This document shows positions 7,138-39,071 of a DNA stretch of 64,000 nucleotides, piece by piece (within the stretch, counting starts at the first letter, position 1; each line of letters opens with the position of its first letter). This DNA comes from Haloplanus ruber (GTDB lineage: Archaea > Halobacteriota > Halobacteria > Halobacteriales > Haloferacaceae), in contig NZ_JANHDK010000001.1 of the NCBI RefSeq assembly GCF_024494725.1, positions 620,001-684,000 of the forward strand, read 5' to 3'. The notes below the pieces were generated by a model. The model made no database searches, was not told where the DNA came from, and worked only from the letters and a program-made list of their open reading frames with translations. The position numbers and the translations under genes were made by a program.

Positions 7138-7212
7138 GGGCGCTTAGCTCAGCCTGGACAGAGTATCTGGCTTCGGACCAGATTGTCGCGGGTTCAAATC
7201 CTGCAGCGCCCA
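7138..7212 (+). tRNA. tRNA-Arg (anticodon TCG)
   Basis: A 75-base cloverleaf. Acceptor arms GGGCGCT / AGCGCCC pair perfectly with discriminator A. The D arm is GCTC/GAGT, the anticodon stem TCTGG/CCAGA with loop CTTCGGA giving anticodon TCG, and the T arm GCGGG-TTCAAAT-CCTGC. CCA is not encoded. No intron is seen. The tRNA forms the left border of the restriction/nuclease block; tRNA-Arg genes are frequent integration sites, but no integrase or second copy of the 3' end was found. Confidence 0.96.
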
Positions 7213-7328
7213 TTCGTCTTCAACGGATTCAATTTGTGCGAGAGGTCATCTTTAGGAAGCCACTGTATTTCGACTGCCTACTTCAGACAATCGAAACACA
7301 GTAGTCGACGCCATCGACGTTCCCTCTA

Positions 7329-7370
7329 CGAAAACACCTATCCCAGAGAGTACACATCTTTTTGTAGATG
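7329..7370 (+). promoter_or_regulatory. mcrB promoter with inverted repeat over the start codon
   Basis: CGAAAACACCTATCCC (7329-7344) looks like a BRE/TATA element centred near -27 relative to the ATG at 7368, implying a leaderless transcript. The start lies in an inverted repeat, CATCT (7355-7359) and AGATG (7366-7370), separated by TTTTGT. A repressor there would block initiation. The repeat is short and could be chance. Confidence 0.4.
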
Positions 7371-9989
7371 CCAAGTACGCTCGAAATTGAGGGCTATTAC
7401 TTTGATACGCAAGAACTGAAGAACGCGTATCACCTCGTTTCGGTTCCGAGTGCGATGGAGGAGACAGATTACTCGGAGGCCGCACTTCGGGGAGTGCTAC
7501 GCTATTTCGCTGATTGGGGGCCCGCGAGGGAAGAACAACTGAACGACGCAGTTGTCGATACGACCGAGACGCTAACAGCCGAGGAAAAACGCGCCCTCTA
7601 TCAGACCTTCACCAGACGTCTTTCAGCAAGTCTCAATGATCAGTATCGCTTCGATATCGACCCTGCCGACCTAGAACGGTTTTTCGAACACATCGGCACC
7701 GACCCAGTGCCGGAATCCTTCGCAACGTTCCTCTTACAATCGATTCGACAGACATCACGCCGTATTCACGAGTACCGACAGGAACTTCAAGATGAGATCG
7801 AAGAAGGGGAAGCCAGTGAACCGAACAGCTTCTGCGAGGCGATTCGACGCCTTCCAAGCCCCTATCTGAAGGCGAAAGCGAACCAGTACCAAGGCGACGA
7901 CAAGATCAACCGGGTTCGCTACCGAGCGCTTCAGTCGATTACGTCGGATAGCGGGTTGACGACTGACGAACTAGCCACATTCATCGAGGAAGAGAACGAG
8001 AAACACGAGAAGAACATCGCTCAGGGTTATAGACCGTTCACTACGGTCGGCCAGCTATACTACGACTACTACAAGCCTCGGCTGAACGCCTATCTTCGGA
8101 CGTTATCCAACTTCTTCCTCGAGCAGAGTGGCGCACAGGAGTCGACCCAGCATATCGTCAACCATTCAGAGCCCCGTCACAAGCTGGACGACTTCGCTTG
8201 GCTAGCGATATTTCCAGCCACCCACGAGAGCCAGACCGAAGCGTACCAACTGTATCTCGGATTCCACGGTGATCGTCTCTCATACGGCCTCCACGTAGGC
8301 GACGAGAAACGTGATGGGGAGTGGAAACAGCAACGTGACCTCGAACGGATAACCGACGAAGCGGTGACTGCCGGAGCTGTGCTTTCGAAATTCGAGTCGG
8401 TCCTCGAGAGCTACCACACGCTCAATGGAATCACCGAACCGAGCCGGCCCGAGCGGCCACCGATAGCTGGTGTTGTCGAGCGTCAACTCAAGAGTTCGAA
8501 GCAAGTCGTTTTCTATGGTCCGCCTGGAACGGGTAAGACGTTCGAGGCGAAGCGGTTCGCCGACTGGTGGGTGAACGAGCGAACTGAAGGCGAGCCGACA
8601 CAGAGTCAGGTTCGGTCGGTCACATTCCACCCGTCGTTTTCCTACGAGGACTTCATCGAGGGTCTGACTGCCGATGCGACTGAGTCCGGGAGCGTTTCCT
8701 ACCGAGTCGAAGACGGCGTCCTGAAGAAAATCGCCGGGGACGCATCCGACGCCCTGCAAGCAACCGCTGACGGTGAGACATCACCACCGTTCGTTCTCAT
8801 CATCGACGAGATCAACCGCGGTAACCTCGCGCAGATATTCGGTGAGGTGATCACGCTCCTCGAAGCCGACAAGCGGGATAGCTTCGAAACCGAGCTCGCC
8901 CACTCGGGGGAGACGTTCACGATTCCATCGAACCTCTACGTCATCGGGACGATGAACACGGCCGACCAGTCCATTGCGCTGGTCGATACTGCGCTTCGAC
9001 GGCGGTTCCGGTTCATCGACTTTCCCCCAGATCTGGAGTCGGTGTTCGACGAGTACGACACCGTAACGACTGATCCACGAAGCGCTGTCACAGAGCGATC
9101 TGATGCAGTCCCACCTAGGGAGCGACTCTTGGGCGTGAGTATTCTCGCAGTGCGAACGCTGAATGACCGTATCTTGGCAGCCCCTCAGCTCGGGAAGGGG
9201 AAACAGCTGGGACACACGTACCTTCTCAACCACGAGTCGGCGAGTGCGTTCTCCGATGCCTGGCGGTACGACATTCTCCCACAACTCGAGGAATACTACT
9301 TCGGTCAGTTCGAGCGCCTTCGTGACGAACTCCTGCGTGAGACGGGCGATCGACTGGTAGACTGGGACACCGAACGGATTCGATCGTTCGATGTACACGA
9401 GCTGTATCTTGCACTATGTGCCCTCGCGGGTATAGACGACCCCGCCCCGCTTCCTCGATCTGTAACTGCAGAGTCCAATGGAGGCGCTACCGGAGCAGTA
9501 CAACAGGATGCAGAAGACCCGTGGGCTGCCGGCGAACGAACACCCGAGACGTTCCGTCAGCGACTAACATCGACACTTGACAGCGAATCGGCAGCACAGA
9601 TCAACAGAGTACTCGACGCTGGTGACGAGATTGGCTGGTTGGACGCGGGCCGAGGCAAGCACAATGCGTCTGTGATGGTGAAGTCAGACGATGTCGATCC
9701 CGGTGTCGGAATCATCAAAATCGACGAAAAGGGAGAAATTGGGTTCCGGTGGAATTGGTTGCACAACCGGGATGAGAACCCACTCACCCGCGAGTTCATC
9801 GAACAAGCCGGCCGCGTCTTCAACGACATCGACGGCTACGAGCACAACTGGAACCCGGACGCAGGAGACAATGGCTCATTCAATGAACCTACCCTCGCCA
9901 TAGACGAACTCGCCGAGGAAGCGATTACGACTCTCGAAGAGGGGATTCGATCGTTCGCGAAAGAAGCGCGGTCGTTCCGGGATGAGTGA
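7368..9989 (+). CDS. mcrB: McrB-like AAA+ GTPase of a type IV restriction system
   Basis: An 873-residue protein. The AAA+ core has Walker A GPPGTGKT at 384-391, the McrB-typical Walker B IIDEINRGN with D480, sensor-1-like VIGTMNTADQS (525-535) and arginine residues in LRRRFRF (543-549). This module is known from McrB/GTPase-driven modification-dependent restriction; the McrC partner follows with an 8-base overlap. About 380 N-terminal residues have no DNA-binding fold I recognise, except that residues about 270-330 (FAWLAIFPATHE...GLHVGDE) resemble the MrcB-type N-terminal domain. Residues about 720-830 form another unassigned domain (GWLDAGRGKHNASVMV...FRWNWLHNRDENPL). Third positions look less GC-rich than in neighbours, consistent with transfer. 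Confidence 0.9.
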   Translation: MPSTLEIEGYYFDTQELKNAYHLVSVPSAMEETDYSEAALRGVLRYFADWGPAREEQLNDAVVDTTETLTAEEKRALYQTFTRRLSASLNDQYRFDIDPADLERFFEHIGTDPVPESFATFLLQSIRQTSRRIHEYRQELQDEIEEGEASEPNSFCEAIRRLPSPYLKAKANQYQGDDKINRVRYRALQSITSDSGLTTDELATFIEEENEKHEKNIAQGYRPFTTVGQLYYDYYKPRLNAYLRTLSNFFLEQSGAQESTQHIVNHSEPRHKLDDFAWLAIFPATHESQTEAYQLYLGFHGDRLSYGLHVGDEKRDGEWKQQRDLERITDEAVTAGAVLSKFESVLESYHTLNGITEPSRPERPPIAGVVERQLKSSKQVVFYGPPGTGKTFEAKRFADWWVNERTEGEPTQSQVRSVTFHPSFSYEDFIEGLTADATESGSVSYRVEDGVLKKIAGDASDALQATADGETSPPFVLIIDEINRGNLAQIFGEVITLLEADKRDSFETELAHSGETFTIPSNLYVIGTMNTADQSIALVDTALRRRFRFIDFPPDLESVFDEYDTVTTDPRSAVTERSDAVPPRERLLGVSILAVRTLNDRILAAPQLGKGKQLGHTYLLNHESASAFSDAWRYDILPQLEEYYFGQFERLRDELLRETGDRLVDWDTERIRSFDVHELYLALCALAGIDDPAPLPRSVTAESNGGATGAVQQDAEDPWAAGERTPETFRQRLTSTLDSESAAQINRVLDAGDEIGWLDAGRGKHNASVMVKSDDVDPGVGIIKIDEKGEIGFRWNWLHNRDENPLTREFIEQAGRVFNDIDGYEHNWNPDAGDNGSFNEPTLAIDELAEEAITTLEEGIRSFAKEARSFRDE

Positions 9990-11277
9990 CTTCGTTCCCA
10001 TCGGCCAACTCGGTCCGCCGATCCAAGCAGAGAGCGAGGCCGGACCGACCCGTGATGGAGACATCGTCTCCCTCGACGAACACGACAGCACTCACCCCAT
10101 CGACCTCAGCCAGAAAGACATCACGTTCTTAGAGTCACTCGATGATATAAGCCAGACGACACCGCTCGAAACCGCCTTCACCAGCGACGGCCTAGTGATC
10201 ATCGAAACCGGTTCTCACGTGGGGACGATCACACTTCCCAGCGGGCTACAGATCGAAGTAACGCCAAAACAAACGGTAACCCGGTTGCTCTGGGCACTAC
10301 AGTACGCGTTCGATACTCCCGTGGATACGTTTGACTTCGAAACGTCGTTCACCAGTGCATCATCGTTCTTCGATGCACTTGGCGTGCTTTTCCAAGCAGA
10401 GCTACAGACCGTCCTCGATCAAGGACTTCACCGTAACTACACTCGGACGCGCGATATTCGAGAGCACGTTCAGGGCCGAATAGACGTACAGCGACAGCTC
10501 CAGCGACCGGCCGCTGTGACGACCAACTTCGCTGTCGAGTACGACGAATTCACTACCGACAACCTGTTGAACCGGGCTGTTCTCGCCTCATTACGGATTC
10601 TCTTGGTGCTCGTTCAAGATGAGAAGTTATCTAGCCGACTGAAGCACCAGGAGCAACAGCTTCGGGAATTCGTTTCCGTGGAACCGGTCTCGATGGCCGA
10701 TGTCCGGCGAATCGAGCTCTCCCGTTTGAACGACCACTACGAGGCGTTGCTCGAACTGGCGCGATTAATCCTCGCACGCGAGTTCTTCGAAGACGTCCGG
10801 GCGGGGGAGCGACGCTCGCTGGCGTTATTCGTCAATATGAACGACGTGTTCGAACGGATAGTCGAACGGTCGTTCCGAGCGGCGGCGAAGAATCTTGACG
10901 GTCTCCAGGTAGCAGGGCAGGCCTCGATACCGAACGTGGTTGAAGGCCCACACGCAGTATCAATGCGCCCCGACATACTCGTCACTCGTGACGACGGCAC
11001 ACCGGTTACTGTGGCTGACGCCAAGTGGAAAACGGGATCGACCTCGTCAGGCGACGTGTACCAACTGACGTCGTACATTTTGGCCCTCGAAGCACCTGGT
11101 GCAATCGTCTATCCGCAGACGGGTGGTGAGCGGAAAGAGTCGAGTGTGATGGGAACCTACTCGCTCCGTTCGATCGAACTCGCAACCAATCCCGACGTAG
11201 AGACGTACGACGACTATGCCACAACTCTCGAAGAGAGTGCTTGCCAGTATCTGAACGCGGTTGGGGAAGCACTGTAG
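9982..11277 (+). CDS. mcrC: McrC-like PD-(D/E)XK nuclease subunit
   Basis: A 431-residue protein overlapping mcrB by 8 bases. The N-terminal half has the McrC pattern (ETGSHVGTITLPSGLQIEVTPKQ). The nuclease core shows RPDILV with D331 and VADAKWK at 345-350 (D346, K348), the PD-(D/E)XK residues of McrC. In characterised systems McrC binds the McrB hexamer, stimulates its GTPase and cleaves DNA carrying modified cytosines or other modifications. All motif residues appear intact. It converges on the helicase gene, 63 bases between stops. Confidence 0.9.
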   Translation: MSDFVPIGQLGPPIQAESEAGPTRDGDIVSLDEHDSTHPIDLSQKDITFLESLDDISQTTPLETAFTSDGLVIIETGSHVGTITLPSGLQIEVTPKQTVTRLLWALQYAFDTPVDTFDFETSFTSASSFFDALGVLFQAELQTVLDQGLHRNYTRTRDIREHVQGRIDVQRQLQRPAAVTTNFAVEYDEFTTDNLLNRAVLASLRILLVLVQDEKLSSRLKHQEQQLREFVSVEPVSMADVRRIELSRLNDHYEALLELARLILAREFFEDVRAGERRSLALFVNMNDVFERIVERSFRAAAKNLDGLQVAGQASIPNVVEGPHAVSMRPDILVTRDDGTPVTVADAKWKTGSTSSGDVYQLTSYILALEAPGAIVYPQTGGERKESSVMGTYSLRSIELATNPDVETYDDYATTLEESACQYLNAVGEAL

Positions 11278-11340
11278 TCCTTTCACGACCGGACGGATTG
11301 ATCGCGCGTCTACCTGCCGGACGTGCGCCAGACGACGCAG

Positions 11341-14220
11341 TCACTGGTCTATTGCTTCGCTAACACCCCCCGAAGGAGGTTCGACCTCTTCGACGAGACG
11401 CTGTATGTCGTCGATGGGTTGGGGGTCAATCTCGTGCCGACTTCCCGTTTCGGTGTAGAAGATACTAGCAGTGATCTCGCGGTCGGGATAGACTTCGCGA
11501 GCGACGTGGTAGTACACGCTCAACTGCTTGCGATACTCCTCTTCGCCATGTCGGCCCCGGTCAGTCTTGTAGTCCACAATCTCGACACAGTCAGGGGTCA
11601 CGCACACGAGGTCGACGATGCCCGAAATCGTGACACGATCACCGTCGACCGACAGCGGTAGATACGCGTCCTCTTCGACCAACAAGTCCCCGTCAAACCC
11701 GTCGATGAGTTGCTTGACGTGCGCTTCGTCAGTATTCCGCGGTTCGACGCACTCACCGAGTGCATACGCCTCGGCGAAGTCGTGAACCTGCGTGCCGAAC
11801 TCAGTCCCTCTGCCGCCCTCGACGTCCTCGAAGACGTCGTCGTGCATGAGTGTGTGTGGCGTGTGGCCTCGTGGGCCCTCTGGGACTGGCATCTCGACCT
11901 GAAGCGGAGTCTGTTCCGTCTCCTTCTGCGTGCGCTCCGTGACGTCGGGAGCGATTTCCTCGACCTCGACTGGGAGTTCTTCGACAAACGTGTTCGGGTC
12001 CTCGCCGGCTGTGAAGACGACGTGGCTTTCGGCGCGGGTGATGGCGACGTACAGCAACCGGCGTTCCTCGTCGTACTCGCGAGGTGAACACTTCTGGAGG
12101 ACGTCGGCTTGCCAGTTGTCGTAGACGTGTGGCAGCCCGTGTGCCTCCTCCGAGTAGATCTTACGCTGCCGCACCCCGTTGGGTTCGTCGTAGCTAATGA
12201 CCCCGCCACCACTGCCACCCGGCGGGAAGCGCCCGCTGTTCATATTCGCCAGAATGACGATGGGATACTCGAGGCCTTTCGTGGCGTGAATCGTCTGGAC
12301 GGTCACCGAGTTCGTCCCCGCCCCGGCGTGCACCTCGTGGGTACTCCCGGCCTCGATTGCGCGCTCGATGAACCGGATGAGGTCGCCACGCGTCTGTGTG
12401 GTCGCGTTGTGGACCGACTGGAGCGTATGGAGGACGACGTCGGCAGTCGGCCCAGCGTACCCGTAGCGCGCGAACACACACCGGGCGACGCCGCCAAGCG
12501 TCTCCATTCCCTGGAGCTCTTCGCAGAACTCGACCATGTTCTCGGGGTATGCCTCACGTTCGAGGACGGCATCGATTTCGTCGAGCGCGTACCCCGCGCG
12601 CTCGAGGACGACTGCCCAACCACGGTCGACGTCGTCTTCGAGGATGCGCAACCAGGCGAGCAGAAGCTTCGCCTGATCGGTTCGGAAGAGTTCGATTCCA
12701 CCCTCGTATGCCATCGGGAGACCGTACTCTTCGGCAGTCCCGAGCAATTCGCGACCGAAGTCACGGGTACGGGTCAACACTGCGACGTCGCTATACTCTG
12801 GCGCCCGGAGGCCACCGTCTTCGTCCTCGACGCGGTAATCCTCGTTGCCGACGATCCCCTGTATCTTCGCCAGCACCGCTTCCTGTTCCTCGTCGCTCTG
12901 GACGGCTTCGATGGTGGTGTTCTCGTGGTCAGCGTTCGACTCGAGTGAGACGATGCGGTCATCGACCGCATCGACGTCGACGTCGTCGCGATTCGCCGCG
13001 GGGACACGGAGGCCGTGTTCCGAGAAGTCGAGGATCCGTTGGGTGGAACGGTAATTCTCGACGAGTTCGATGGTGGTGATGGGACTCGTAGGGAACGAGA
13101 CCCGTTCGTGGTCGCTGTTCAACTGCTCGACGAATCGACCGAGTCGATCCTCGAACTCGACGATGTTGGCGACGTCGGCGTACTGGAAGCGATAGATGCT
13201 CTGCTTCCAGTCTCCGACGACACAGATGTTGTTCGTCCCCGCCAACAGGAGCGCGAGTTTGAACTGGATCTCGCTGGAGTCCTGGAACTCGTCGATCATC
13301 ACGTACTCGAACGCGACCTCCTCGCGCAACTCGTGGTTCTCACAGAGCAGGACGAACGCGAACAGTTGGAGCATCCCGAAGTTCAGGTAGTTCCGCCGCA
13401 GCGCGAACCGCAGGTACTCGTGGTAGACATCGTGGACGAACGCCTTCAGTTCCCCTCGGTCCTCGGCAAAGACGAGTTGGGCGATGTCGTCGGGCACCTG
13501 CTTGCCGCTGCCGCGAATCTTCGACTTCTCGGGCGCATCTGGCAGGTATGTCTTGTTCCGGCCGTACCGACCGAGTTTCGACCGCAGCAGCGACTGTTTG
13601 CTCCCACCGTTGCGCGATTCGTTCAGCTCGTCGAACTGTTGCTTGAACGCTGCAAAGTCGCCATCGAGGTGGCGCTCGCCGTCGCGGTACCAGCCGTCGG
13701 CGTCGGGGAATACCCCCTTCGCGGCGAGCTGGTTGACGAGTCCCAGCAGGTCTTCTGGGTTCGAGAGCGCGCGGAAAACGTCGTCGTACTCGGGGTGGTC
13801 GTCGCTGAATCGGTCGATGAACTCCTCGAACAGGGCTTGTTCGACGAGTTCGTCCTCGATGATGCGCGTCGATCCGGTGATGCGGTCGTCGATGCCGAGG
13901 TAGGTTGGCGCGGCGTGGCCATGCTCTTCGAGGACGTCGTGGCACAGCGAGTGGAACGTCTGGATCGGTGCGTCCGCGAGGTCACGCATCCCGTAGTGGC
14001 AGTTGCCGACGATGCGATCTTTCATCTCGCCGGCCGCGTTGTTCGTGAACGTTACAAGTAAGACGTCGTCAGGCTCGACGTCGTTCTGTGAGACGATGTT
14101 GGCGTAACGGCGCGTCACGGTGAACGTCTTGCCGGTCCCGGCGCCGGCGTCGACGAGGTAGAGACCGTCCGTGCTGTCGATGAGTTCCTGTTGCTGATCG
14201 TTCGGTTGGGGGTCGGTCAT
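11341..14220 (-). CDS. AddA/UvrD-like helicase with C-terminal PD-(D/E)XK nuclease
   Basis: A 959-residue superfamily 1 helicase-nuclease. Motif I is DAGAGTGKT at 24-32, motif II IDEFQDSSEIQ, motif III VVGDWKQSIYRF, then VENYRST (IV), TIHATKGLEYPIVI (V) and YVAITRAESHVV (VI). The C-terminal nuclease carries ISGIVDLV followed by EIVDYKTDRG and QLSVYYHVA, a RecB/AddA-type active site. It is shorter than bacterial AddA (about 1200). The start overlaps the stop of the upstream AddB-like gene by 4 bases. Expected activity is ATP-dependent unwinding and degradation of DNA ends; whether it repairs host DNA or destroys invaders cannot be told from sequence. Confidence 0.9.
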   Translation of the reverse strand: MTDPQPNDQQQELIDSTDGLYLVDAGAGTGKTFTVTRRYANIVSQNDVEPDDVLLVTFTNNAAGEMKDRIVGNCHYGMRDLADAPIQTFHSLCHDVLEEHGHAAPTYLGIDDRITGSTRIIEDELVEQALFEEFIDRFSDDHPEYDDVFRALSNPEDLLGLVNQLAAKGVFPDADGWYRDGERHLDGDFAAFKQQFDELNESRNGGSKQSLLRSKLGRYGRNKTYLPDAPEKSKIRGSGKQVPDDIAQLVFAEDRGELKAFVHDVYHEYLRFALRRNYLNFGMLQLFAFVLLCENHELREEVAFEYVMIDEFQDSSEIQFKLALLLAGTNNICVVGDWKQSIYRFQYADVANIVEFEDRLGRFVEQLNSDHERVSFPTSPITTIELVENYRSTQRILDFSEHGLRVPAANRDDVDVDAVDDRIVSLESNADHENTTIEAVQSDEEQEAVLAKIQGIVGNEDYRVEDEDGGLRAPEYSDVAVLTRTRDFGRELLGTAEEYGLPMAYEGGIELFRTDQAKLLLAWLRILEDDVDRGWAVVLERAGYALDEIDAVLEREAYPENMVEFCEELQGMETLGGVARCVFARYGYAGPTADVVLHTLQSVHNATTQTRGDLIRFIERAIEAGSTHEVHAGAGTNSVTVQTIHATKGLEYPIVILANMNSGRFPPGGSGGGVISYDEPNGVRQRKIYSEEAHGLPHVYDNWQADVLQKCSPREYDEERRLLYVAITRAESHVVFTAGEDPNTFVEELPVEVEEIAPDVTERTQKETEQTPLQVEMPVPEGPRGHTPHTLMHDDVFEDVEGGRGTEFGTQVHDFAEAYALGECVEPRNTDEAHVKQLIDGFDGDLLVEEDAYLPLSVDGDRVTISGIVDLVCVTPDCVEIVDYKTDRGRHGEEEYRKQLSVYYHVAREVYPDREITASIFYTETGSRHEIDPQPIDDIQRLVEEVEPPSGGVSEAIDQ

Positions 14221-16802
14221 CGGTCACCCTCCAGGAGGAGGTCGCGGTTGTCCACGTAGCGGTAGTTCGGTTCCCCACCGAGTCCCTCGACGGGGAAGCG
14301 CTCCTCACCTGCACGTCGTCGATTCAACTCCTCGAGACGCTCGTCGACGAACGGCTCGAACGCGTCAAGGTCGTTCTCGAAGAACGCCTGTCCACGGACG
14401 CGCGTCAACTGACGCAGCGCCTGCTTGCAGCCCGACTCGACGTACTTGTAGTCGCCTACGCAGTCTTTCATCCGTGCAGTTAGTGTCTCGCCGAACACCG
14501 AGTCGATGAGTTCGTCGCTGTCAGTTGTATCCGGTGGGGCCGCCTCGTCGAAGACCGCAGCGTAGTCCTCGTAGGCCACCTGAGAGAGCGTTTTCTGGCA
14601 GTTGTTCGAGCCGTCCTCGACTAGCTCGTCGAAGAAGGACTCGGAGCGGGCGTATTCGTCGAACGGCATCGGGTAGTACGAAACCGTCGTTAGCGTGTCG
14701 TCAAGGTCAACTTCGCCGGCGACGACATCGTCGAGCGTCTCGAGGAAGTGGAAGAATGTGAACTCGAGTTCTTGGTCGGGATACTGCGAGCGCCAGTGGG
14801 TGAGGTACAGCAGTGCTTGGAAGTTCGGCGAATCGCTCGGCGGGTCGAGCGCCGAACTCTTGACGACTTGACCGGCGCTTTTGCGCCGGCCGCTCTTGTG
14901 GTCGACCAGCCGGGATGGCGAGTGAATCAGATCGATCTTACCCTTCAGTCTCAGGTCGTCGTTCTCGAACCAGCGTTCGGTGATGGGAGAGGCGACGGAT
15001 TTGTCGAAGCGCTCGGCAAAGACGTTCGTCCCCCAGTCGCTCGTGGTGGTGAGGAACTCGCCGTCGACCGGCCTGTTCTCCTCGAAGAACGCGACGATGG
15101 TCTCCAGACCAGCACGGTATTTGGTCCGTCGGGTCGCTTCGTCGACCGACCGGACGAACGGTCGCGTTTCGTTGAGCACGTACTCCACGACGTCGTCGAT
15201 AACGTTGTCGTCGACGAACTCCGGGTGGGTGACGTAGAACTCGGCGAAATCGTGGAACAAGTTGCCTTCTTTGAAGTAATCCTTGTCTGGGCCGTCGACA
15301 AGCCGGCCGAAGAAGTGGTCGCGGGGCGAGTTGACGTACGTGCTAAGGCTCGACTGGCTGATGGTCGACACCTCGGTGGTGGTGGCGTCGGACGATTCTT
15401 TCTCAAATCCACCACCAGAACGACCGACCCGTCGCGTGTGCGTTTCGGATTCGAGGTCGCTGAAGCGCTCGAACTCTTCGTCAAGCAATTCTTCGAAGTA
15501 GAGACACGGCGTAACCGGTGAACCTCCCTTCGCATCCTGGACGAGGTAGTATTGGGTTCCCCCGCTCTGGAGAAGGAGCCGAAACTGCTGGATGTTGCGC
15601 GTGTACTGGGCGTCCTGGTCGACCCAGGGGCGACGTGGCGCCGAGTGTGTCCAGTCTTCGTCCAATCCCAGGTAGAAGACGACCGGGCGGTCGACGTAGG
15701 CGGCTGACTTCGCGTCGGCGAGCAACACACCCTCGTTCTCACGGTCGACGGGTACCTCGTAGCTCTGGAGGTAGAACACGAGCTGGTCCACCGCGCGCTC
15801 GGTTGCGTGCGTGTCGGCGATTCCGAGCGTCTCCAGTTCGTCACGGAATGTGTCGAGTCGGCGGTCTACCCTGTCCTCGAACCGATCGAGCACCTCAGCG
15901 AAAGTCCGGTTCTCGATGCGGTCACAGAAGTCGACAACCCAGTCCAGTTCACTGTCGTCGAGTTCGTAGAGCCGTTTCTCGTCGTGTTCGACGTCTATAG
16001 AGACGCCGAGTCGAGAGAGGAGTGGCCGTATCTCGCCGACGCGAGTATCGGTGCCGCCGTGTGCTGCACGAAGCAACTGGACGAACGTGCGGTGATCCGG
16101 ATGGTCGACGAACCCGGGGCCACCGTAGAACGGGATGTCGTCAGCCTCGAAGGCAGACTCGATGAGTGGGGAGAACTCACTCCCCTGATCGAGTACGACA
16201 GCAACGTCGTCGGCGTTCTCTTCGGTAACGGCGTCGACGACGGTGTCGACGATTGCTGTCGAGGAGTCGAAGATGTGGAACGGTGGATGGTCGAACTCCC
16301 TGTCGTCGAACGTGTCGTACGTATCGTAGTCGTCGGGGAGGATGGAACGCTCCAGTTGGGTCAGTTGCTCGTCGCCGACGACGGCGACATCCTGCTGATC
16401 GTCGATTCGATACTCGGTGAGTCGCCAGGAGGTCGTCTCGAGGTCAGCGATGTGCTCGACGGCTTGGCGTGTGGCGTCGTCGACGTAGGCGTCGTAGTCG
16501 AGAATCGCCTCGAGACGCCCATGATGTTCCCAGCACTGGAGGATGTTCCCGATGGCGTAGGCACCGCGCTTCCAGTCCAAGTCGGTCCGTTCGACGAGTT
16601 CGAGGAAGGCAATGCGGTCCTCGGCTTCTTCGCGGCGACCCGCTGCGAGACGACGTGGGGTTATCGCAAACGATCCGAGGTGTGGCCTGTCGATACGGCG
16701 GTTCAACGCACTGGCCAGCGGCGCGTCTGGGACCACAACGAGGTCGTATCCAGCGACCTCATCGTAGAGGTCGTCAACCGGCTTGGCCCGAGGAAATGAC
16801 AC
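14217..16802 (-). CDS. AddB/RexB-like PD-(D/E)XK nuclease subunit
   Basis: An 861-residue partner of the helicase. The N-terminal half looks like an inactivated helicase fold, as in AddB: it begins with a strand-loop VVVPDAPLASALNR lacking a P-loop and contains VFYLGLDEDWTHSAPRRPW. The C-terminal nuclease shows LKGKIDLI followed by LVDHKSGRRKS. Cysteines near the C-terminus (MKDCVGDYKYVESGCK) recall the AddB iron-sulfur cluster, but the four-cysteine pattern is not clear. First gene of a two-gene minus-strand operon coupled by a 4-base overlap. Assignment rests on arrangement and motifs; similarity to bacterial AddB looks distant. Confidence 0.78.
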   Translation of the reverse strand: MSFPRAKPVDDLYDEVAGYDLVVVPDAPLASALNRRIDRPHLGSFAITPRRLAAGRREEAEDRIAFLELVERTDLDWKRGAYAIGNILQCWEHHGRLEAILDYDAYVDDATRQAVEHIADLETTSWRLTEYRIDDQQDVAVVGDEQLTQLERSILPDDYDTYDTFDDREFDHPPFHIFDSSTAIVDTVVDAVTEENADDVAVVLDQGSEFSPLIESAFEADDIPFYGGPGFVDHPDHRTFVQLLRAAHGGTDTRVGEIRPLLSRLGVSIDVEHDEKRLYELDDSELDWVVDFCDRIENRTFAEVLDRFEDRVDRRLDTFRDELETLGIADTHATERAVDQLVFYLQSYEVPVDRENEGVLLADAKSAAYVDRPVVFYLGLDEDWTHSAPRRPWVDQDAQYTRNIQQFRLLLQSGGTQYYLVQDAKGGSPVTPCLYFEELLDEEFERFSDLESETHTRRVGRSGGGFEKESSDATTTEVSTISQSSLSTYVNSPRDHFFGRLVDGPDKDYFKEGNLFHDFAEFYVTHPEFVDDNVIDDVVEYVLNETRPFVRSVDEATRRTKYRAGLETIVAFFEENRPVDGEFLTTTSDWGTNVFAERFDKSVASPITERWFENDDLRLKGKIDLIHSPSRLVDHKSGRRKSAGQVVKSSALDPPSDSPNFQALLYLTHWRSQYPDQELEFTFFHFLETLDDVVAGEVDLDDTLTTVSYYPMPFDEYARSESFFDELVEDGSNNCQKTLSQVAYEDYAAVFDEAAPPDTTDSDELIDSVFGETLTARMKDCVGDYKYVESGCKQALRQLTRVRGQAFFENDLDAFEPFVDERLEELNRRRAGEERFPVEGLGGEPNYRYVDNRDLLLEGDR

Positions 16803-16922
16803 GACAGAAAGAGCAGACTGTCAACTAATAAAGGTTCATAGAGAGAGCATATCGCATTCAGTAAACCGGCACTCCCTCCCCAAGATACACTCTGAACGGG
16901 GGTGTCAGCGGAGGGGTCTCAC

Positions 16923-17337
16923 ACCGCCACAGTAACTAGTCGAATCGGTAGCTGTAGAGTATATTGATAGTGTCAACTCGGACGTAGAATCGTCTGAAAA
17001 GTCGAGAGTGGTGTCTGTCGCTGTGAACGACAGTCGTGTCCCAGTATTACTGCCGGACGACGTTCGCCGCGCGAGGCCCCTTCGGCGAGGACTCGATGTC
17101 GAATTCGACCTCAGTACCTTCCGTGAGGTCTTCGCCGCCGACATCCTCCATGTGGAAGAACACGTCTTCGTCGTCGTCGAGGTCGCCGTCGTCAGTCGAA
17201 ATGAAACCGTAGCCGCCTGTGTCGTTGAAGAAATCAACCTTACCGTTTGCCATTACAAACAAACAGAGGGCCGAGTGACGGATAACGTTTCCGAGGGTCA
17301 AGGTATCACGGCACCTTCACGACCGCCACAGTAGCTA
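16923..17337. repeat. Near-identical 16-base direct repeat flanking cspA
   Basis: ACCGCCACAGTAACTA at 16923-16938 and ACCGCCACAGTAGCTA at 17322-17337 match at 15 of 16 positions, one on each side of cspA about 400 bases apart. No transposase or inverted ends are seen. They may be remnants of a duplication or a recombination target. Confidence 0.45.
17047..17253 (-). CDS. cspA: Cold-shock domain protein (CspA family)
   Basis: A 68-residue single cold-shock domain. It opens MANGKVDFFNDTGGYGFIST with RNP1-like GGYGFI, and RNP2-like VFFH at about residues 31-34. A longer in-frame start at 17298 exists, but MANGKVDFF is the universal family start. The acidic loop DDGDLDDDED is typical of halophilic versions. 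Expected to bind single-stranded RNA/DNA as a chaperone. Confidence 0.95.
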   Translation of the reverse strand: MANGKVDFFNDTGGYGFISTDDGDLDDDEDVFFHMEDVGGEDLTEGTEVEFDIESSPKGPRAANVVRQ

Positions 17338-33740: not shown

Positions 33741-35885
33741 TCAGGCGGTGTCGACGCCCGTAATTTCGACTCGTGTTCCGCCGCCGTCGCTGTCTGTCAC
33801 CGCGACCTTCCAGCCGTGACCGTCGACGATGCGCTTGACGATCCGCAACCCAAGGCCGGTTCCATCGGTCGTAGTCGAGTAGCCAGCCTCGAAGACCTCC
33901 TCGCGTTCGTTCTCGGGAATCCCGACCCCGTCGTCCGCGACGTAGAACCCGTCGGGCAGGTCGCCGACTGACACCGTCACCTCCGCCCCACCGTGTTCGA
34001 CGGCGTTGGCGAAGAGATTCTCCAGCACCTGGCGGAAGCGGCTGCGGTCGGCACGTATCGTCCGGTCGCTCTCGACAGCCAGCGTGGCGTCGTCGCTCGG
34101 GACCATCTGCCAACACTCCTCGGCTTGTGCCGGCACCGAGAGTGGTTCGGTGCTGCCCACCGTATCGCCGCACTGTGCGAGCGTCGACAGGTCGTCGATA
34201 AGCGCCTGACTCCGGTCCAGTGCATCGGCTGCGGCCGACAGGTGGGTGGAGTCGTCCTCTGCCTGTGCCAACTCCAGCCGCCCCGTGGCGGCCTGAAGTG
34301 GGTTTCGTAGGTCGTGGGTGACGACGTCGGTAAATTCCTCCAACCGCTCGTTTTGGGTCTCGAGTTCCTGCCTGCGCTCGACTTGCTCCGTGACGTTCTG
34401 TGTCAGTGCGATTCCGTGAGTGATCGCTCCGCCACCGGTTTCGACCGGCACCGTCCGATTCCGGTAGGTCCGGTCCCCGAGCGTCTGTGTGAACGTATGA
34501 CTGCGCCCGTTCAGGGCCTCGGTGAAATAGTGTGCGAGTTCTTCGGCGAGCGCGTCCGGGAAGACGTCGTGTGGAGTCGTCCCTTCGACATCGTCGGGTG
34601 AGAGACCGACCGCGTCGAGTTCTGGCCCACGAGCCCGGACGTACCGAAGGTCGTCGTCGAACAGGAACACTGCCCCGTTGGGAATATTCTCCGAGAGTGT
34701 CCGATACTGACGACTCAGCTCCAGTATCTCTTCGACGCGACGCTTGCTCTCGGTCACGTCCTGAATCGTCCCACGAACTCTGACGAGCTCTCCGTCCTCG
34801 GTCTGTGGCTGCCCGTGGACGGACACCCACCGTGTCTCTCCGTCTGCGGGCTGGAGCCGCAGCTCTAGGTCGTACGGCTCGCCGGTTTCGACCGCGTCCG
34901 TACACGCCTCCCGAAGCGTCTCCCGGTCGTCCGGATGGTGCAGGTCCACGACCGCTTCGGTGTCCGCGGGCGCCTCCGGTGGACGGTCGTAGATTTCGTA
35001 GACCTGATCCGTCCACGTGATTCGGTCCTCCAAAATGTCGTACTCCCACGCACCGATGTCGGCGATGTCCTGCGCTTTCCTGAAGAGGTCGTTTTGCCGC
35101 TCCAGTTGCTCTTTTTGCCACCGTTTTTCCGTGATGTCGTAAAACGAAACCACCAACTGTTCGATCTCACCGTCCAACACGACGGGAGCAACCTTGCCCG
35201 GTCTGGCAACCTGACCGGCCGGCAGTTCGAGGTCGACCGTGTATTCGAGCGGTTCACCACGCTCGACGCACGTCCGGTATGCCCCCCGAATTTTCCGCCC
35301 GTCCTCCGGGCCGAACACCTCACACGGCGTGTGTCCGACGATACCTGTCCGGTCCCGGCCAATGAGTTCGAGCGCCTGCGGGTTACACCGTTGATATCGG
35401 AATCCGTCGCGTTCGACATCGACCAACAGCAGTCCAACCAAGGCGCTCTCGAAGACGGTGGCGTACTCCTCTCTCGTCTCCCGGAGCCGGGTTTCGGATC
35501 GGTACTGTGAGACGGCGTTTCCGATGCGGTTGGCGAGCAACTCGTACTGATCCGTCCCTTTCCCTTTCTGTAGGTAATCGGTCGCGCCGTGGGCAATCGC
35601 CTCGCTGGCGACCTCCTCGCTCCCCTTACCGGTGAACAGAATAAACGGTAACTCGGGCCACTCGTCGCGGACACGTCGCAGGAACTCGATGCCGTTTGCC
35701 CCCGGCATGTCGTAATCGGAAACGACACAGTCGGGTGGCTGGCTTCTGATCCTGTCGATGGCCTCGGCGACACTCGTGGCCGTCTGAACGGCGAAACGGT
35801 CGTCTTCGCGCTCGAGGAACGTCGCCGTCAGCTTGCCAAGCTGAGTGTCGTCGTCGACGTGAAGCACTCGCACCGTCTGGGTCAC
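33741..35885 (-). CDS. Receiver-PAS histidine kinase (REC-PAS-PAS-PAS-HisKA-HATPase)
   Basis: A 714-residue soluble kinase. The N-terminal receiver has acidic DDD at 11-13 and phospho-acceptor D57 in VVSDYDMPG, then lysine in YLQKGKG. Three PAS units follow at about 140-255, 260-370 and 380-495 (FDDDLRYVRARGPELDAVGL). HisKA carries H524 in VVTHDLRNPLQA, and the ATPase boxes are VLENLFANAVEHG, VADDGVGIPENE and TDGTGLGLRIVKRIV. This receiver-first order is common in haloarchaeal signalling. It has no membrane segment, so input is likely a cytoplasmic cue or another kinase. Confidence 0.93.
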   Translation of the reverse strand: MTQTVRVLHVDDDTQLGKLTATFLEREDDRFAVQTATSVAEAIDRIRSQPPDCVVSDYDMPGANGIEFLRRVRDEWPELPFILFTGKGSEEVASEAIAHGATDYLQKGKGTDQYELLANRIGNAVSQYRSETRLRETREEYATVFESALVGLLLVDVERDGFRYQRCNPQALELIGRDRTGIVGHTPCEVFGPEDGRKIRGAYRTCVERGEPLEYTVDLELPAGQVARPGKVAPVVLDGEIEQLVVSFYDITEKRWQKEQLERQNDLFRKAQDIADIGAWEYDILEDRITWTDQVYEIYDRPPEAPADTEAVVDLHHPDDRETLREACTDAVETGEPYDLELRLQPADGETRWVSVHGQPQTEDGELVRVRGTIQDVTESKRRVEEILELSRQYRTLSENIPNGAVFLFDDDLRYVRARGPELDAVGLSPDDVEGTTPHDVFPDALAEELAHYFTEALNGRSHTFTQTLGDRTYRNRTVPVETGGGAITHGIALTQNVTEQVERRQELETQNERLEEFTDVVTHDLRNPLQAATGRLELAQAEDDSTHLSAAADALDRSQALIDDLSTLAQCGDTVGSTEPLSVPAQAEECWQMVPSDDATLAVESDRTIRADRSRFRQVLENLFANAVEHGGAEVTVSVGDLPDGFYVADDGVGIPENEREEVFEAGYSTTTDGTGLGLRIVKRIVDGHGWKVAVTDSDGGGTRVEITGVDTA

Positions 35886-36776
35886 AACGTATTATGTTGC
35901 CTGCAAAAGAGTAAATGATTTACCATCCCCAAGTGCGTCGTGTTCCACGGCGTGACCCCTCATAGTCTGCAGTGGCGACGCCGCGACGAGACGGAGCGCG
36001 GAATACCTGTATGCGTCGTGAACGCCGCTTCAAGCGTAGATACCCCGGCGGCTGCTCCTCAGCCGGGTCGTCGGTTCGGGTTGCTCCAAGTCGACCACAC
36101 GCATAGATTCGGAGCGTGGACCGGAGCGTTTGAGACTGCCGACCTCTCTCGCAACCCGCGGATCGAAAGAAGCGTTCAGATCGAGCAGCACTCGCCGAAA
36201 TAGAACGACTCGCCGATAAGTACAATCCCCTTCGAGCCGGGAGATGGCCGAGCACGTGGAGACCGGTCGGAGCGCGTATCGGAAACACGCCGGTTCGTGG
36301 AACAACGCCCCCGAAGCGGCCGGAATAGATCGTCTGCGACCGAAGTCCAACACATCCCGGAACCAGCCGACGAGTGACGACGCCTAGCGGATGAACTCGG
36401 CACCACCTCGACAACGGATGCCCTGCGGCGAGATGGTGAGTTCAGTCCGGGCACCGACACCACTCGGTTCGGGTCGTGGGTCGCGGCCCCGTGAGACGGG
36501 TTGGCTTGTTCGTTATCCAATTGAACCGCGCAACCCCGAAATTCGCGGGTTTCAAAGACCATTTGACCGGGGAGAGCGACGATCACCGGCGAGATCAGAC
36601 CGAGCTATCCCTCTATAATCCACCCGTTGAACGGCGTGACGGTGATCGGCAATCAGTCATAGGCAATCTTCAACCGCCTCACAACAACACAGGTAGGGGA
36701 AAACGGGTGACGTAAGCGCGTTCGATCACAGCACCGGGCTGTGAGACAGGGCGCGCGAAAATAGGAGCGAACGACT
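35886..36776. other. Gene-poor 891-base region
   Basis: No intact gene is seen. Open frames in all six frames lack the acidic, GC3-rich signature of surrounding genes, and they overlap one another. A 47-codon frame at 36244-36386 (MAEHVETGRSAYRKHAG) and a protein-like run just before it in another frame (EIERLADKYNPLRAGRWPS) may be debris of an inactivated gene. The last about 100 bases should hold the promoter of the DUF1102-type pair; GAAAACGGGTGACGTAAG at 36698-36715 is a possible BRE-like stretch. Confidence 0.4.
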
Positions 36777-37319
36777 ATGCAACGACGCAAGTTCATCACT
36801 GGTGTGGGATCACTCGCGGCCGCGGCGGTCGCTGTGACTGGTACTGGTGCGTTTACTAACGTGACTGCAAGCCGGAACGTCGACGTGGCGGTTGCTGACG
36901 ACGCAAGCGCGTACCTGCGACTGGAGGGGACCGGCGGCGCAAACTCCGAGTACGTGACCGACGACGGGAACGGTGGAACGCTGTCCATCGACCTAGATGC
37001 CAGTAACGCAACTGGTGGTGGAGGTGACGGTGTCAATCCCGACGCAGTGACCCAGATAGACGACCTCTTCCACATCGAGAATCAGGGAACGCAAGAGGTC
37101 GAAGTCAGTCTCTCCAAGACAGGAGACAATAGCTCTCTGGTGAAGTTCTACAAGGATGGTAACGCGTACGACGGAGACTCGATTGGGAGTAGCCCAGTCA
37201 CCCTCGGGACGGGGAGTAGTGTTACTGTCAGTATCGAGATCGACACGGTCGGTGAAAGTGTGAGCGACGGCGACCAGCTCCTCGGTTCGGTGACCTTCAC
37301 CGCGACCGCAACCAACTAG
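36777..37319 (+). CDS. DUF1102-type exported protein 1
   Basis: A 180-residue protein with a twin-arginine-like signal (MQRRKFITGVGSLAAAAVAVTGTGAF), then a beta-rich domain beginning ASRNVDVAVADDASAYLRLEG. The features VAVADDASAYL, FHIENQGTQEVEVSLS and GDQLLGSVTFTATA are typical of haloarchaeal DUF1102/SipW-type surface proteins. A second member follows 11 bases downstream. It probably forms part of an extracellular or envelope structure; role unknown. Confidence 0.8.
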   Translation: MQRRKFITGVGSLAAAAVAVTGTGAFTNVTASRNVDVAVADDASAYLRLEGTGGANSEYVTDDGNGGTLSIDLDASNATGGGGDGVNPDAVTQIDDLFHIENQGTQEVEVSLSKTGDNSSLVKFYKDGNAYDGDSIGSSPVTLGTGSSVTVSIEIDTVGESVSDGDQLLGSVTFTATATN

Positions 37320-37330
37320 GAGGAGTAATA

Positions 37331-37912
37331 ATGAACCGTCGAAGATTCGTGCTGGGACTCGGGGCCCTCGCCGGTGGCGGTGCGGCAACCGTGGGTACCG
37401 GAGCGTTCTCCAGTGTCGAGGCGCAGCGTAATATCAGCGTCACGGTCAGCGACGACGCCGACGCACACCTCGGCATTCAGCCGACCGATGAACCGAGCGG
37501 AAATTACGTCGACACCACCTCGAATGACGCCCTCGCAATCGACCTCACCGCGAGCAACAACAATGTCGGGAGCGGAATCGCTGGTGGGGAGGGACTGAAC
37601 GCGAACGCGATCACCGAGATTGCCGATGTGTTCGAGATCCGGAATCAGGGCGCCCAGACAGTTGAGGTAACCGCGACCCCACTGGCGTATCTCGAGACCG
37701 ACTCTGGAGCGGTGGCCGTTCTGCTCGTGCCACAAAACGCACCAGATCTGTTTGGTTTCGGAGTCTTCTATCCAACGGACGGAATCACGATCAAGGAACT
37801 AGCTCCTGGTGAGGACATCCGCTTTGGCCTCATCGGCCTCCCACTTTCGGAGAGTGCAATCGACTCATCAGGTATCAGTGACGAACTAGCGATCAGCGCG
37901 GAGGCGGTGTAA
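37331..37912 (+). CDS. DUF1102-type exported protein 2
   Basis: A 193-residue paralogue of the previous gene: signal MNRRRFVLGLGALAGGGAATVGTGAF, then AQRNISVTVSDDADAHLGIQPT and VFEIRNQGAQTVEV. The match to the upstream paralogue is strongest in the signal and first strand, with a diverged second half (APGEDIRFGLIGLPLSESAID). Tandem arrangement with short spacing indicates co-transcription and perhaps co-assembly. Confidence 0.8.
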   Translation: MNRRRFVLGLGALAGGGAATVGTGAFSSVEAQRNISVTVSDDADAHLGIQPTDEPSGNYVDTTSNDALAIDLTASNNNVGSGIAGGEGLNANAITEIADVFEIRNQGAQTVEVTATPLAYLETDSGAVAVLLVPQNAPDLFGFGVFYPTDGITIKELAPGEDIRFGLIGLPLSESAIDSSGISDELAISAEAV

Positions 37913-37914
37913 CA

Positions 37915-38040
37915 ATGCCAAACGAGCCACCGACGGTCAGTGATTACGAGGAGATGGCAGAGGTTGACTTCGACTTCAGTGACGACGAGCTAGATAGGGA
38001 GACTCTAAACGCGAGACTCGCTGAAATGTTCGACAACTAG
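37915..38040 (+). CDS. 41-residue acidic protein in DUF1102 operon
   Basis: ATG at 37915 starts two bases after the preceding stop. The 41 codons read MPNEPPTVSDYEEMAEVDFD, then FSDDELDRETLNARLAEMFDN, very acidic, with a helix-forming C-terminus. The tight junction with the DUF1102-type operon supports it being real. No family recognised; an accessory or chaperone-like role is possible. Confidence 0.6.
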   Translation: MPNEPPTVSDYEEMAEVDFDFSDDELDRETLNARLAEMFDN

Positions 38041-38077
38041 AATCGAGCGGGTTCTCTCCGCTATTCTCTAATTTCTA

Positions 38078-38285
38078 TATCGACGAAAGTGACGCCGTTG
38101 AGCCAAACGCGTCTCGTGCCTGTTGTACGGTGTCGTGAACTAACTCAGCGACGTACGACGACCGGAGACCCCTGTCAAACTCCCTTCTGCGAGGGAGTAG
38201 TTCCGCGCTCAGAGGTGATGAATCCAGTCGTCTCAGAGTTCGCACTTCGCGGTCGTGATCCCTGAGTATGACCGAGGAACAGTAG
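38078..38285 (-). pseudogene. Possible gene remnant abutting tRNA-Ala
   Basis: On the minus strand a frame free of stops runs from the end of the tRNA to a stop near 38078. It reads LRDHDREVRTLRRLDSSPL, then SAELLPRRREFDRG and LRSSYVAELVHDTVQQARDAF. The second half looks like a real protein C-terminus, with codons such as TTA unusual for this genome. There is no start codon before the tRNA, so if genuine it is a truncated relic, possibly left by an element inserted at the tRNA. Confidence 0.3.
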
Positions 38286-38357
38286 TGGACTCGCCGGGAT
38301 TTGAACCCGGGGCCTCTCCCATGCCAAGGGAGTGATCTACCCCTGATCTACGAGCCC
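38286..38357 (-). tRNA. tRNA-Ala (anticodon GGC)
   Basis: A 72-base cloverleaf on the minus strand. Acceptor arms GGGCTCG / CGAGTCC pair with one G-U, discriminator A. The anticodon stem is CTCCC/GGGAG with loop TTGGCAT giving anticodon GGC, and the T arm is CCGGG-TTCAAAT-CCCGG. CCA is not encoded and no intron is seen. Confidence 0.95.
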
Positions 38358-38385
38358 GCGTCGCAACGAACCGTACCGCGGTCCA

Positions 38386-38395
38386 CATAATAAGG
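38386..38395 (-). promoter_or_regulatory. Probable TATA element of tRNA-Ala
   Basis: CCTTATTATG on the minus strand lies about 29-38 bases before the tRNA 5' end, in an otherwise GC-rich stretch. Confidence 0.5.
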
Positions 38396-38449
38396 CCTTC
38401 GGATCGGGGCGTCGGTCGTGTCACAGTCCCACGGCCCCGAACCCTCGGA

Positions 38450-38467
38450 TTCGAAACGGTTTAGTGC
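38450..38467 (+). promoter_or_regulatory. BRE/TATA promoter of the rps15 operon
   Basis: TTCGAAACGGTTTAGTGC has a BRE-like CGAAAC followed by a TATA-like TTTAG. It would start transcription at about 38487, giving a leader of about 115 bases before the rps15 ATG, unusually long for a haloarchaeal gene. Confidence 0.5.
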
Positions 38468-38543
38468 TGGACTGCGTTGGTTCGGGTGGGAACGGCGCGA
38501 CCGCAAATCCGACTCGCCTTCGGGCTTGGGATTGCGGGAGTGT

Positions 38544-38565
38544 GTGACCGACAGCTGTCGGTCAC
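38544..38565 (+). promoter_or_regulatory. Perfect 22-bp palindrome in rps15 leader
   Basis: Arms GTGACCGACAG and CTGTCGGTCAC abut with no mismatch. In RNA this gives a 9-bp stem with an AGCU loop, 38 bases before the start codon. It could be a ribosomal-protein autoregulatory leader hairpin or a DNA operator; the sequence does not decide. Confidence 0.7.
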
Positions 38566-38603
38566 GGATACGCTTCTGCGGTCTGTGCGGTTCCAATCCA
38601 TCT

Positions 38604-39071
38604 ATGGCACGAATGCACACCCGCCGCCGTGGCTCGTCCGGTTCGGACAAGCCGGCGGCAGACGAACCCCCGGAGTGGAGCGACGTAGACGAAGCGGACA
38701 TCGAAGAGCGCGTGGTCGAACTCGCCGAGCAGGGTCACGACCCGAGCGTCATCGGGATGAAACTGCGCGACGAGGGCGTGAAAGGCACGCCAATCCCCGA
38801 CGTCAAGCTGGCGACGGGGAAGAAGCTCACCGAGATTCTGGCAGAACACGACGCTGAGCCGGAACTGCCCGAGGACCTGCGCAGCCTGATGGAGCGGGCC
38901 CTCCGCCTGCGCGAGCATATGCAGGAGAACCCTCAGGACCACCAGAACAAGCGCGCACTCCAGAACACGGAGTCGAAGATCCGCCGCCTCGTGAACTACT
39001 ACCGCGGCGACGCGCTCGACGAGGACTTCACGTACAGCTACGAGGTCGCCGTCGAACTGCTCGAGGAATAG
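38604..39071 (+). CDS. rps15: 30S ribosomal protein S15
   Basis: A 155-residue archaeal/eukaryotic-type S15 (S13e family): MARMHTRRRGSSGSDKP, WSDVDEADIEERVVELA, GHDPSVIGMKLRDEGVKGTPIPDVK, and the conserved HQNKRALQNTESKIRRLVNYYR RNA-binding region near the C-terminus. It binds 16S rRNA in the small subunit. Upstream in-frame ATGs (38418 and others) would add non-homologous residues. It begins a four-gene operon. Confidence 0.97.
   Translation: MARMHTRRRGSSGSDKPAADEPPEWSDVDEADIEERVVELAEQGHDPSVIGMKLRDEGVKGTPIPDVKLATGKKLTEILAEHDAEPELPEDLRSLMERALRLREHMQENPQDHQNKRALQNTESKIRRLVNYYRGDALDEDFTYSYEVAVELLEE

What the first reader, a model, noticed from the sequence alone, without database searches (positions are those of the whole stretch)
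7138..16802. Defence-island candidate: McrBC convergent with an AddAB-like helicase-nuclease pair next to tRNA-Arg
Two tightly overlapping gene pairs face each other: McrB/McrC (8-base overlap) and an AddA-like helicase-nuclease with an AddB-like nuclease (4-base overlap). All core motifs seem intact: Walker A/B, McrC D331/D346/K348, helicase motifs I-VI, and both AddAB-like PD-(D/E)XK sites. McrBC makes breaks in modified DNA; a RecBCD/AddAB-type machine would degrade from those breaks. A combined cut-and-chew system in archaea is plausible and, as far as I know, not described as a unit. Known: the individual families. Inferred: that they work together.
Basis: partly seen in the sequence, partly recalled or inferred. 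Interest (0 to 1): 0.8.

Follow-up and report, generated by a model that had tools for sequence, protein, structure and literature searches.

The report
Mobile DNA-shredding gene pair beside McrBC
Next to an arginine tRNA gene, a salt-loving archaeon carries a McrBC enzyme predicted to cut modified foreign DNA, beside a mobile two-gene DNA-degrading machine (a compact relative of AddAB) that turns up across haloarchaea next to many anti-virus systems; the two are repeatedly neighbours but are not an obligatory unit.

Summary
Observation confirmed: McrB/McrC (8-nt overlap) converge on an AddA-like helicase-nuclease and an AddB-like nuclease (4-nt overlap), downstream of tRNA-Arg, with all catalytic motifs present.

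The AddBA pair is a compact haloarchaea-specific AddAB-like family. It occurs in 162/391 genomes, always as a pair (140/140 loci), with no match in phages or viral contigs, and moves as its own ~5.4-kb unit. The predicted AddB fold matches B. subtilis AddB best.

A weaker form survives. McrBC lies within ~9 kb of AddBA in 7/140 loci (0.16 expected), with at least five independent origins on the AddA tree and different McrBC lineages beside near-identical AddBA. AddBA is also linked to BREX-5 (43 vs 28.6 expected genomes). A second, full-size haloarchaeal AddAB shows the same habits: next to McrBC, and divergent from BREX-5 operons. The two AddAB types tend to exclude each other.

Best reading: an interchangeable DNA-end-degrading module recruited beside several restriction-type systems, McrBC being one. 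Function is inferred. I found no published description of this association.

The parts
7138..7212 (+). tRNA-Arg (TCG); its 3' end is the sharp border of the strain-specific island
   Evidence: similarity to four of ten fetched congener loci stops exactly at 7213, one at 7221, others end just before the tRNA
7368..9989 (+). McrB: AAA+ GTPase motor with an unassigned N-terminal head (1-370)
   Evidence: the head differs between relatives
9982..11277 (+). McrC: PD-(D/E)XK nuclease subunit, D331, D346, K348
11341..14220 (-). compact AddA-like protein: UvrD-type SF1 helicase plus C-terminal RecB-type nuclease
14217..16802 (-). compact AddB-like protein: helicase-fold N-terminal region without Walker A plus RecB-type nuclease (D624, D634, K636)
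   Evidence: predicted fold: best PDB hits are B. subtilis AddB chains
11400..16843 (-). the unit that recurs as DNA (72-87% identity) in otherwise unrelated surroundings: AddB-AddA with about 40 nt upstream
   Evidence: similarity in L032-L040 starts at 11381-11500 and ends at 16757-16843
7312..16842 (.). the whole McrBC-AddBA block shared with one other genus (G141), 86% DNA identity
   Evidence: L035

Best explanation
The AddBA pair (11341-16802) is a compact haloarchaeal AddAB-type helicase-nuclease that spreads horizontally as a two-gene module and is recruited into defence islands next to restriction-type systems: here McrBC, elsewhere BREX-5, DISARM-like or R-M genes. Most likely mechanism: AddB-AddA heterodimers load on DNA ends, AddA unwinds, and the two RecB-type nucleases degrade the strands, so that ends made by a neighbouring nuclease (here McrBC cutting modified DNA) or the free ends of a linear viral genome are destroyed rather than repaired. 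Shown: gene content, intact motifs, AddB-type fold, strict pairing, mobility, defence-island context, repeated juxtaposition with several systems including independent McrBC lineages. Inferred: heterodimer, end-dependence, that it acts on the products of its neighbours, antiviral effect.
For: Two full nuclease motifs plus helicase motifs conserved in 98.5% or more of 122-138 relatives. AlphaFold model of AddB (pLDDT 76.6): top four PDB hits are AddB of B. subtilis AddAB, then RecC, AdnA, UvrD. AddA next to AddB in 140/140 loci. Patchy: 162/391 genomes, 56/86 genera, 2 of 8 listed genomes of the own genus including the window's own. The DNA block is confined to AddBA in different surroundings. 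Neighbours are BREX (BrxA, BrxB, BrxC, PglZ, PglX, BrxHII), DrmD/DrmMI-like, type IIG and III R-M, Lamassu-like, McrBC. Matched plasmid windows: 8/10 with defence genes vs 2/10 controls, p=0.023. Proximity to McrC 7 vs 0.16 expected; to BrxC 13 AddB loci within 20 kb and 43 vs 28.6 genomes, p=1.4e-4. A second, full-size AddAB has the same partners and the two AddABs are anticorrelated (23 vs 36.5, p=9e-4).
Against: No experiment. Defence islands cluster unrelated systems, so adjacency alone does not show joint action. Statistics are not corrected for phylogeny; the compact pair is partly inherited vertically at one chromosomal site, a tRNA-Arg locus shared with the window. The control comparison is small and classified by hand from annotation. 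The AddB model has low inter-domain certainty (pTM 0.51, TM 0.27).
Confidence: 0.55

Rival explanations
1. Dedicated cut-and-chew system: McrBC and AddBA evolved as one functional unit, McrBC cutting modified DNA and AddBA degrading from the cuts.
For: Convergent AddBA-McrBC adjacency with 33-142 nt gaps in the window, G141, G036 and Halosimplex pelagicum, and co-directional AddB-AddA-McrB-McrC in Natrinema salsiterrestre. Different McrBC lineages sit beside 87%-identical AddA (McrC 37% identical). At least 5 independent gains of proximity, 3 of direct adjacency. Full-size AddAB followed co-directionally by McrBC in Halocatena salina.
Against: 133/140 AddBA loci lack McrBC nearby; genome-level co-occurrence at chance; many McrBC loci have no compact AddBA. 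Equal or greater proximity to BREX.
Confidence: 0.15
2. AddBA is a stand-alone antiviral system (like Gabija or Hachiman, a helicase plus nuclease acting on DNA ends or damage) that merely shares islands with McrBC, BREX and others.
For: Moves alone as a 5.4-kb unit; neighbours vary widely; two proteins suffice by motif content; comparable helicase-nuclease defence pairs are known (PMC12278908 abstract; PMC12904381).
Against: Non-random enrichment next to BREX-5 and McrBC and the same pattern in full-size AddAB suggest a link with the neighbours.
Confidence: 0.2
3. AddBA is a DNA repair or replicon-maintenance enzyme (double-strand break processing), often carried by plasmids, with no defence role.
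For: Bacterial AddAB is a repair enzyme (established knowledge); Orc1/Cdc6 and ParA genes are common neighbours on plasmids.
Against: Absent from more than half of the genomes, and 164/391 lack both AddAB types (arithmetic); neighbours are rich in defence genes; patchy within genera.
Confidence: 0.1

Closest known systems
Bacterial AddAB (B. subtilis; NCBIfam TIGR02785/TIGR02773)
   Same: Two-gene operon, SF1 helicase with C-terminal RecB nuclease plus a dead-helicase/nuclease partner; AddB model hits AddB chains first
   Different: Smaller (959/861 aa vs about 1130-1234 aa for each bacterial subunit); far below AddA cut-offs and closer to PcrA; AddB recognised by no AddB model; no C-x2-C-x5-C iron-sulphur pattern (pattern from my own knowledge)
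Full-size haloarchaeal AddAB (1222/1062 aa on pHLAJ5I; 1212/1062 aa on pNATPE02)
   Same: Same order of genes, overlap, defence-island partners (BREX-5, McrBC)
   Different: A separate family (24% identity in AddA, no significant BLASTP match in AddB), scores 364-377 bits to AddA
McrBC (type IV restriction)
   Same: GTPase motor with McrC nuclease, overlapping genes, motifs intact
   Different: N-terminal head of unknown type; MNTADQS instead of the E. coli MNTADRS (E. coli motif from memory)
Type II/III CoCoNuT (McrBC with SF1 helicase CnuH; PMC11090510)
   Same: McrBC-type genes together with an SF1 helicase
   Different: CnuH is UPF1-like, not UvrD/AddA-like; CoCoNuTs are nearly absent from archaea; no AddB-like partner mentioned
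Gabija (GajB UvrD helicase)
   Same: PADLOC GajB profiles match the UvrD core of AddA
   Different: No GajA OLD-family nuclease; RecB-type nucleases instead

Membership tests
McrBC type IV restriction | McrB AAA+ GTPase with Walker A/B next to McrC with PD-(D/E)XK motif | tested here: met
McrBC type IV restriction | N-terminal domain recognising modified DNA | tested here: inconclusive
   no Pfam hit for residues 1-371; structure model of too low confidence, pLDDT 48
McrBC type IV restriction | GTP-dependent cleavage of modified DNA | not testable with these tools
   needs biochemistry
AddAB (bacterial equivalog) | AddA scores above the NCBIfam equivalog cut-off | tested here: not met
   181 bits vs cut-off 708
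AddAB (bacterial equivalog) | AddB recognised by AddB models | tested here: not met
   no NCBIfam hit
AddAB superfamily (helicase-nuclease plus AddB-fold nuclease) | AddA: helicase motifs plus C-terminal nuclease; AddB: AddB/RecC-type fold with nuclease | tested here: met
AddAB superfamily | AddB iron-sulphur cluster cysteines | tested here: not met
   well conserved Cys only at 90, 433, 735 (792 partly), wrong spacing; this feature defines bacterial AddB, not RecC or AdnA
AddAB superfamily | Chi recognition and end resection | not testable with these tools
   needs biochemistry
Gabija | GajA OLD nuclease beside GajB | tested here: not met
   no such neighbour; partner is AddB-like
CoCoNuT | UPF1-like CnuH helicase with CnuB/CnuC | tested here: not met
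   helicase is UvrD/PcrA-like
Dedicated McrBC-AddBA system | the four genes co-occur across genomes | tested here: not met
   29 vs 26.5 expected, p=0.49
Dedicated McrBC-AddBA system | repeated adjacency in unrelated islands | tested here: met
   7/140 loci vs 0.16 expected; at least 3 independent direct adjacencies

The most novel reading that the evidence does not exclude
In haloarchaea two non-orthologous AddAB-type helicase-nucleases (compact AddBA and full-size AddAB) fill the same interchangeable slot as the DNA-degrading second step of defence, serving BREX-5 (which has no known nuclease) and McrBC. The BREX-5 operons with a divergent AddAB, and the McrBC-AddAB tandems, would be true functional super-systems.
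Probability: 0.3. Interest if true: 0.82.

Novelty: new variant of a known kind. Interest (0 to 1): 0.56.

Why it matters
If AddAB-type machines are standard partners of BREX and McrBC in archaea, they may supply the missing destruction step of BREX and show that relatives of a bacterial repair enzyme were recruited as shared antiviral effectors. It also gives a family (compact AddB) that PADLOC 2023 does not contain (no AddB-like model hit) although 41% of sampled haloarchaea carry it. The 2026 BREX survey (PMC12839542) has no occurrence of UvrD, AddA, RecB or McrB in its main text, so the association seems undescribed and is directly testable in Haloferax or Halorubrum virus systems.

Tried and rejected
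AddBA as a core repair gene: rejected by its patchy distribution. AddBA carried by viruses: no phage or IMG/VR match. Gabija or CoCoNuT membership: partner genes and helicase type do not fit. tRNA att duplication inside the window: none found with up to 3 mismatches. Nature of the McrB head: no Pfam hit and an uninformative model. Phylogeny-corrected co-occurrence tests were not possible because the genus of most negative genomes was not listed.

Full report
1. The observation. tRNA-Arg(TCG) lies at 7138-7212. McrB (7368-9989, +) and McrC (9982-11277, +) overlap by 8 nt; the AddA-like (11341-14220, -) and AddB-like (14217-16802, -) genes overlap by 4 nt. Pfam assigns AAA_5, McrBC, UvrD helicase plus PDDEXK_1, and PDDEXK_1 respectively. 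GC drops from about 0.68 to 0.53-0.64 between 7 and 28 kb. Against congeners, DNA similarity runs up to the tRNA and stops at base 7213 in four of ten fetched loci, at 7221 in another, and just before the tRNA in others, so the 3' end of tRNA-Arg is the island border. The same tRNA-Arg sits near AddBA in twelve other fetched loci, including a congener; it is an insertion hotspot.

2. What AddBA is. The helicase scores higher to PcrA than to AddA and is far below any AddA equivalog cut-off; AddB is recognised only as a PD-(D/E)XK nuclease. In 122-138 relatives both proteins keep full RecB/Cas4-type nuclease motifs, and AddA the helicase motifs. An AlphaFold model of AddB (pLDDT 76.6, pTM 0.51) has the AddB chains of B. 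subtilis AddAB as its top four PDB hits, followed by RecC, AdnA and UvrD; TM-scores are low (about 0.27) because domain placement is uncertain. The bacterial iron-sulphur cysteine spacing (own knowledge) is not there. So it is AddAB-like in design, and a distinct compact family rather than AddAB proper.

3. Distribution. Compact AddB: 162 of 391 Halobacteria genomes, 56 of 86 genera, and in the own genus only the window's genome and G334 among the eight listed. The best 80 of 117 relatives in 84,980 species genomes are all haloarchaea (the other 37 were not shown). No phage record and no IMG/VR contig matches; 34 haloarchaeal plasmids do. AddA adjoins AddB in 140 of 140 loci. The conserved DNA block in relatives with 72-87% identity is AddBA alone, with unrelated flanks; only G141 shares the McrBC part too.

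4. Is McrBC its partner? McrC is in 64 of 391 genomes. Both occur in 29 genomes against 26.5 expected (p=0.49): no genome-level link. Yet where both occur they are often close: 7 of 140 AddBA loci have McrBC within about 9 kb, 0.16 expected under random placement. Direct neighbours are found in convergent order (window, G141, G036, Halosimplex pelagicum; gaps 33-142 nt) and co-directionally in Natrinema salsiterrestre. On the AddA tree this needs at least five gains of proximity and three of direct adjacency. G036 and Halosimplex have 87% identical AddA but McrC only 37% identical, so different McrBC lineages were placed beside the same AddBA.

5. Other partners. Neighbour clustering and PADLOC scans show BREX (BrxA, BrxB, BrxC, PglZ, BrxHII), DrmD/DrmMI-like proteins, HmaC-like, type IIG and type III R-M and Lamassu-like proteins. 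Among ten annotated plasmids I judged 8 AddBA surroundings to hold defence genes against 2 of 10 windows on the opposite side of the same plasmids (Fisher p=0.023). BrxC co-occurs with compact AddB in 43 genomes vs 28.6 expected (p=1.4e-4), with 13 AddB loci within 20 kb of BrxC.

6. A second AddAB. Two of the control windows contained a full-size AddAB (1222/1062 aa and 1212/1062 aa). It scores 364-377 bits to AddA and is a separate family. It is in 88 of 391 genomes, co-occurs with McrC (27 vs 14.4, p=1e-4) and BrxC (29 vs 15.5, p=5e-5), and is under-represented with compact AddB (23 vs 36.5, p=9e-4). It lies within 10 kb of McrC in 5 genomes and of BrxC in 8 (about 0.2 expected each), five of the latter in a stereotyped divergent arrangement. 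Named examples: a complete BREX-5 operon divergent from AddAB in Natrinema pellirubrum; BREX-5, AddAB and McrBC in one row in Halocatena salina, with AddB-AddA-McrB-McrC on one strand; and in Natrinema caseinilyticum.

7. Interpretation. The simplest account is a DNA-end-degrading helicase-nuclease that haloarchaeal islands recruit next to systems that mark, block or cut foreign DNA, with two unrelated AddAB versions filling the slot. In this window the partner is McrBC. Shown: motifs, fold class, pairing, mobility, context. Inferred: enzyme activity, cooperation, antiviral effect. A stand-alone antiviral function is the strongest rival.

8. Literature. Searches for AddAB with haloarchaea, BREX or McrBC found no description of these associations. 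A 2026 BREX survey (PMC12839542) contains none of the words UvrD, AddA, RecB or McrB in its main text. The CoCoNuT census (PMC11090510) links McrBC with UPF1-like SF1 helicases, nearly absent in archaea. Subscription journals and supplements were not searchable.

9. Caveats. Genomes are related, so the p-values are optimistic; the anticorrelation of the two AddABs in particular may partly reflect lineage. Expected proximities assume random placement on a 3.6-Mb genome and ignore that defence systems cluster. The McrB model (pLDDT 48) says nothing about the recognised modification.

Noticed in passing
L286 (NC_019963.1 240509-267369), L287 (NZ_CP096023.1 25784-58038), L288 (NZ_CP100447.1 13272-37575): Full-size haloarchaeal AddAB lies divergently, 0.13-0.35 kb upstream, of BREX-5 operons, and in two of the three McrBC follows on the other side.
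   Followed up: partly
window 7138-7213 and congeners (G334:C1:1790837, G392:C2:2138442): Copies of the 23-24 nt 3' end of tRNA-Arg(TCG) lie downstream of the tRNA in congeners, as left by site-specific integration; none found in the window.
   Followed up: partly
L035 15513-18122 (McrB of G141): Walker A reads GPPGTSKT instead of GPPGTGKT, so this McrB may be impaired although the gene is otherwise conserved.
   Followed up: no
L282 2862-5999 and L285 2865-5999 (McrB N-termini): Related McrBs carry a quite different N-terminal head (by eye resembling an EVE domain), so the recognition domain is swapped while motor and C-terminus stay.
   Followed up: no
window 17047-17253: Small cold-shock protein gene (CSD) just beyond the AddB start, between AddBA and a sensor kinase.
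   Followed up: no
window 35000-39000: A second low-GC stretch (0.58-0.61) beside tRNA-Ala (38285-38357), holding small proteins of unknown function (DUF1102), possibly another insertion site.
   Followed up: no
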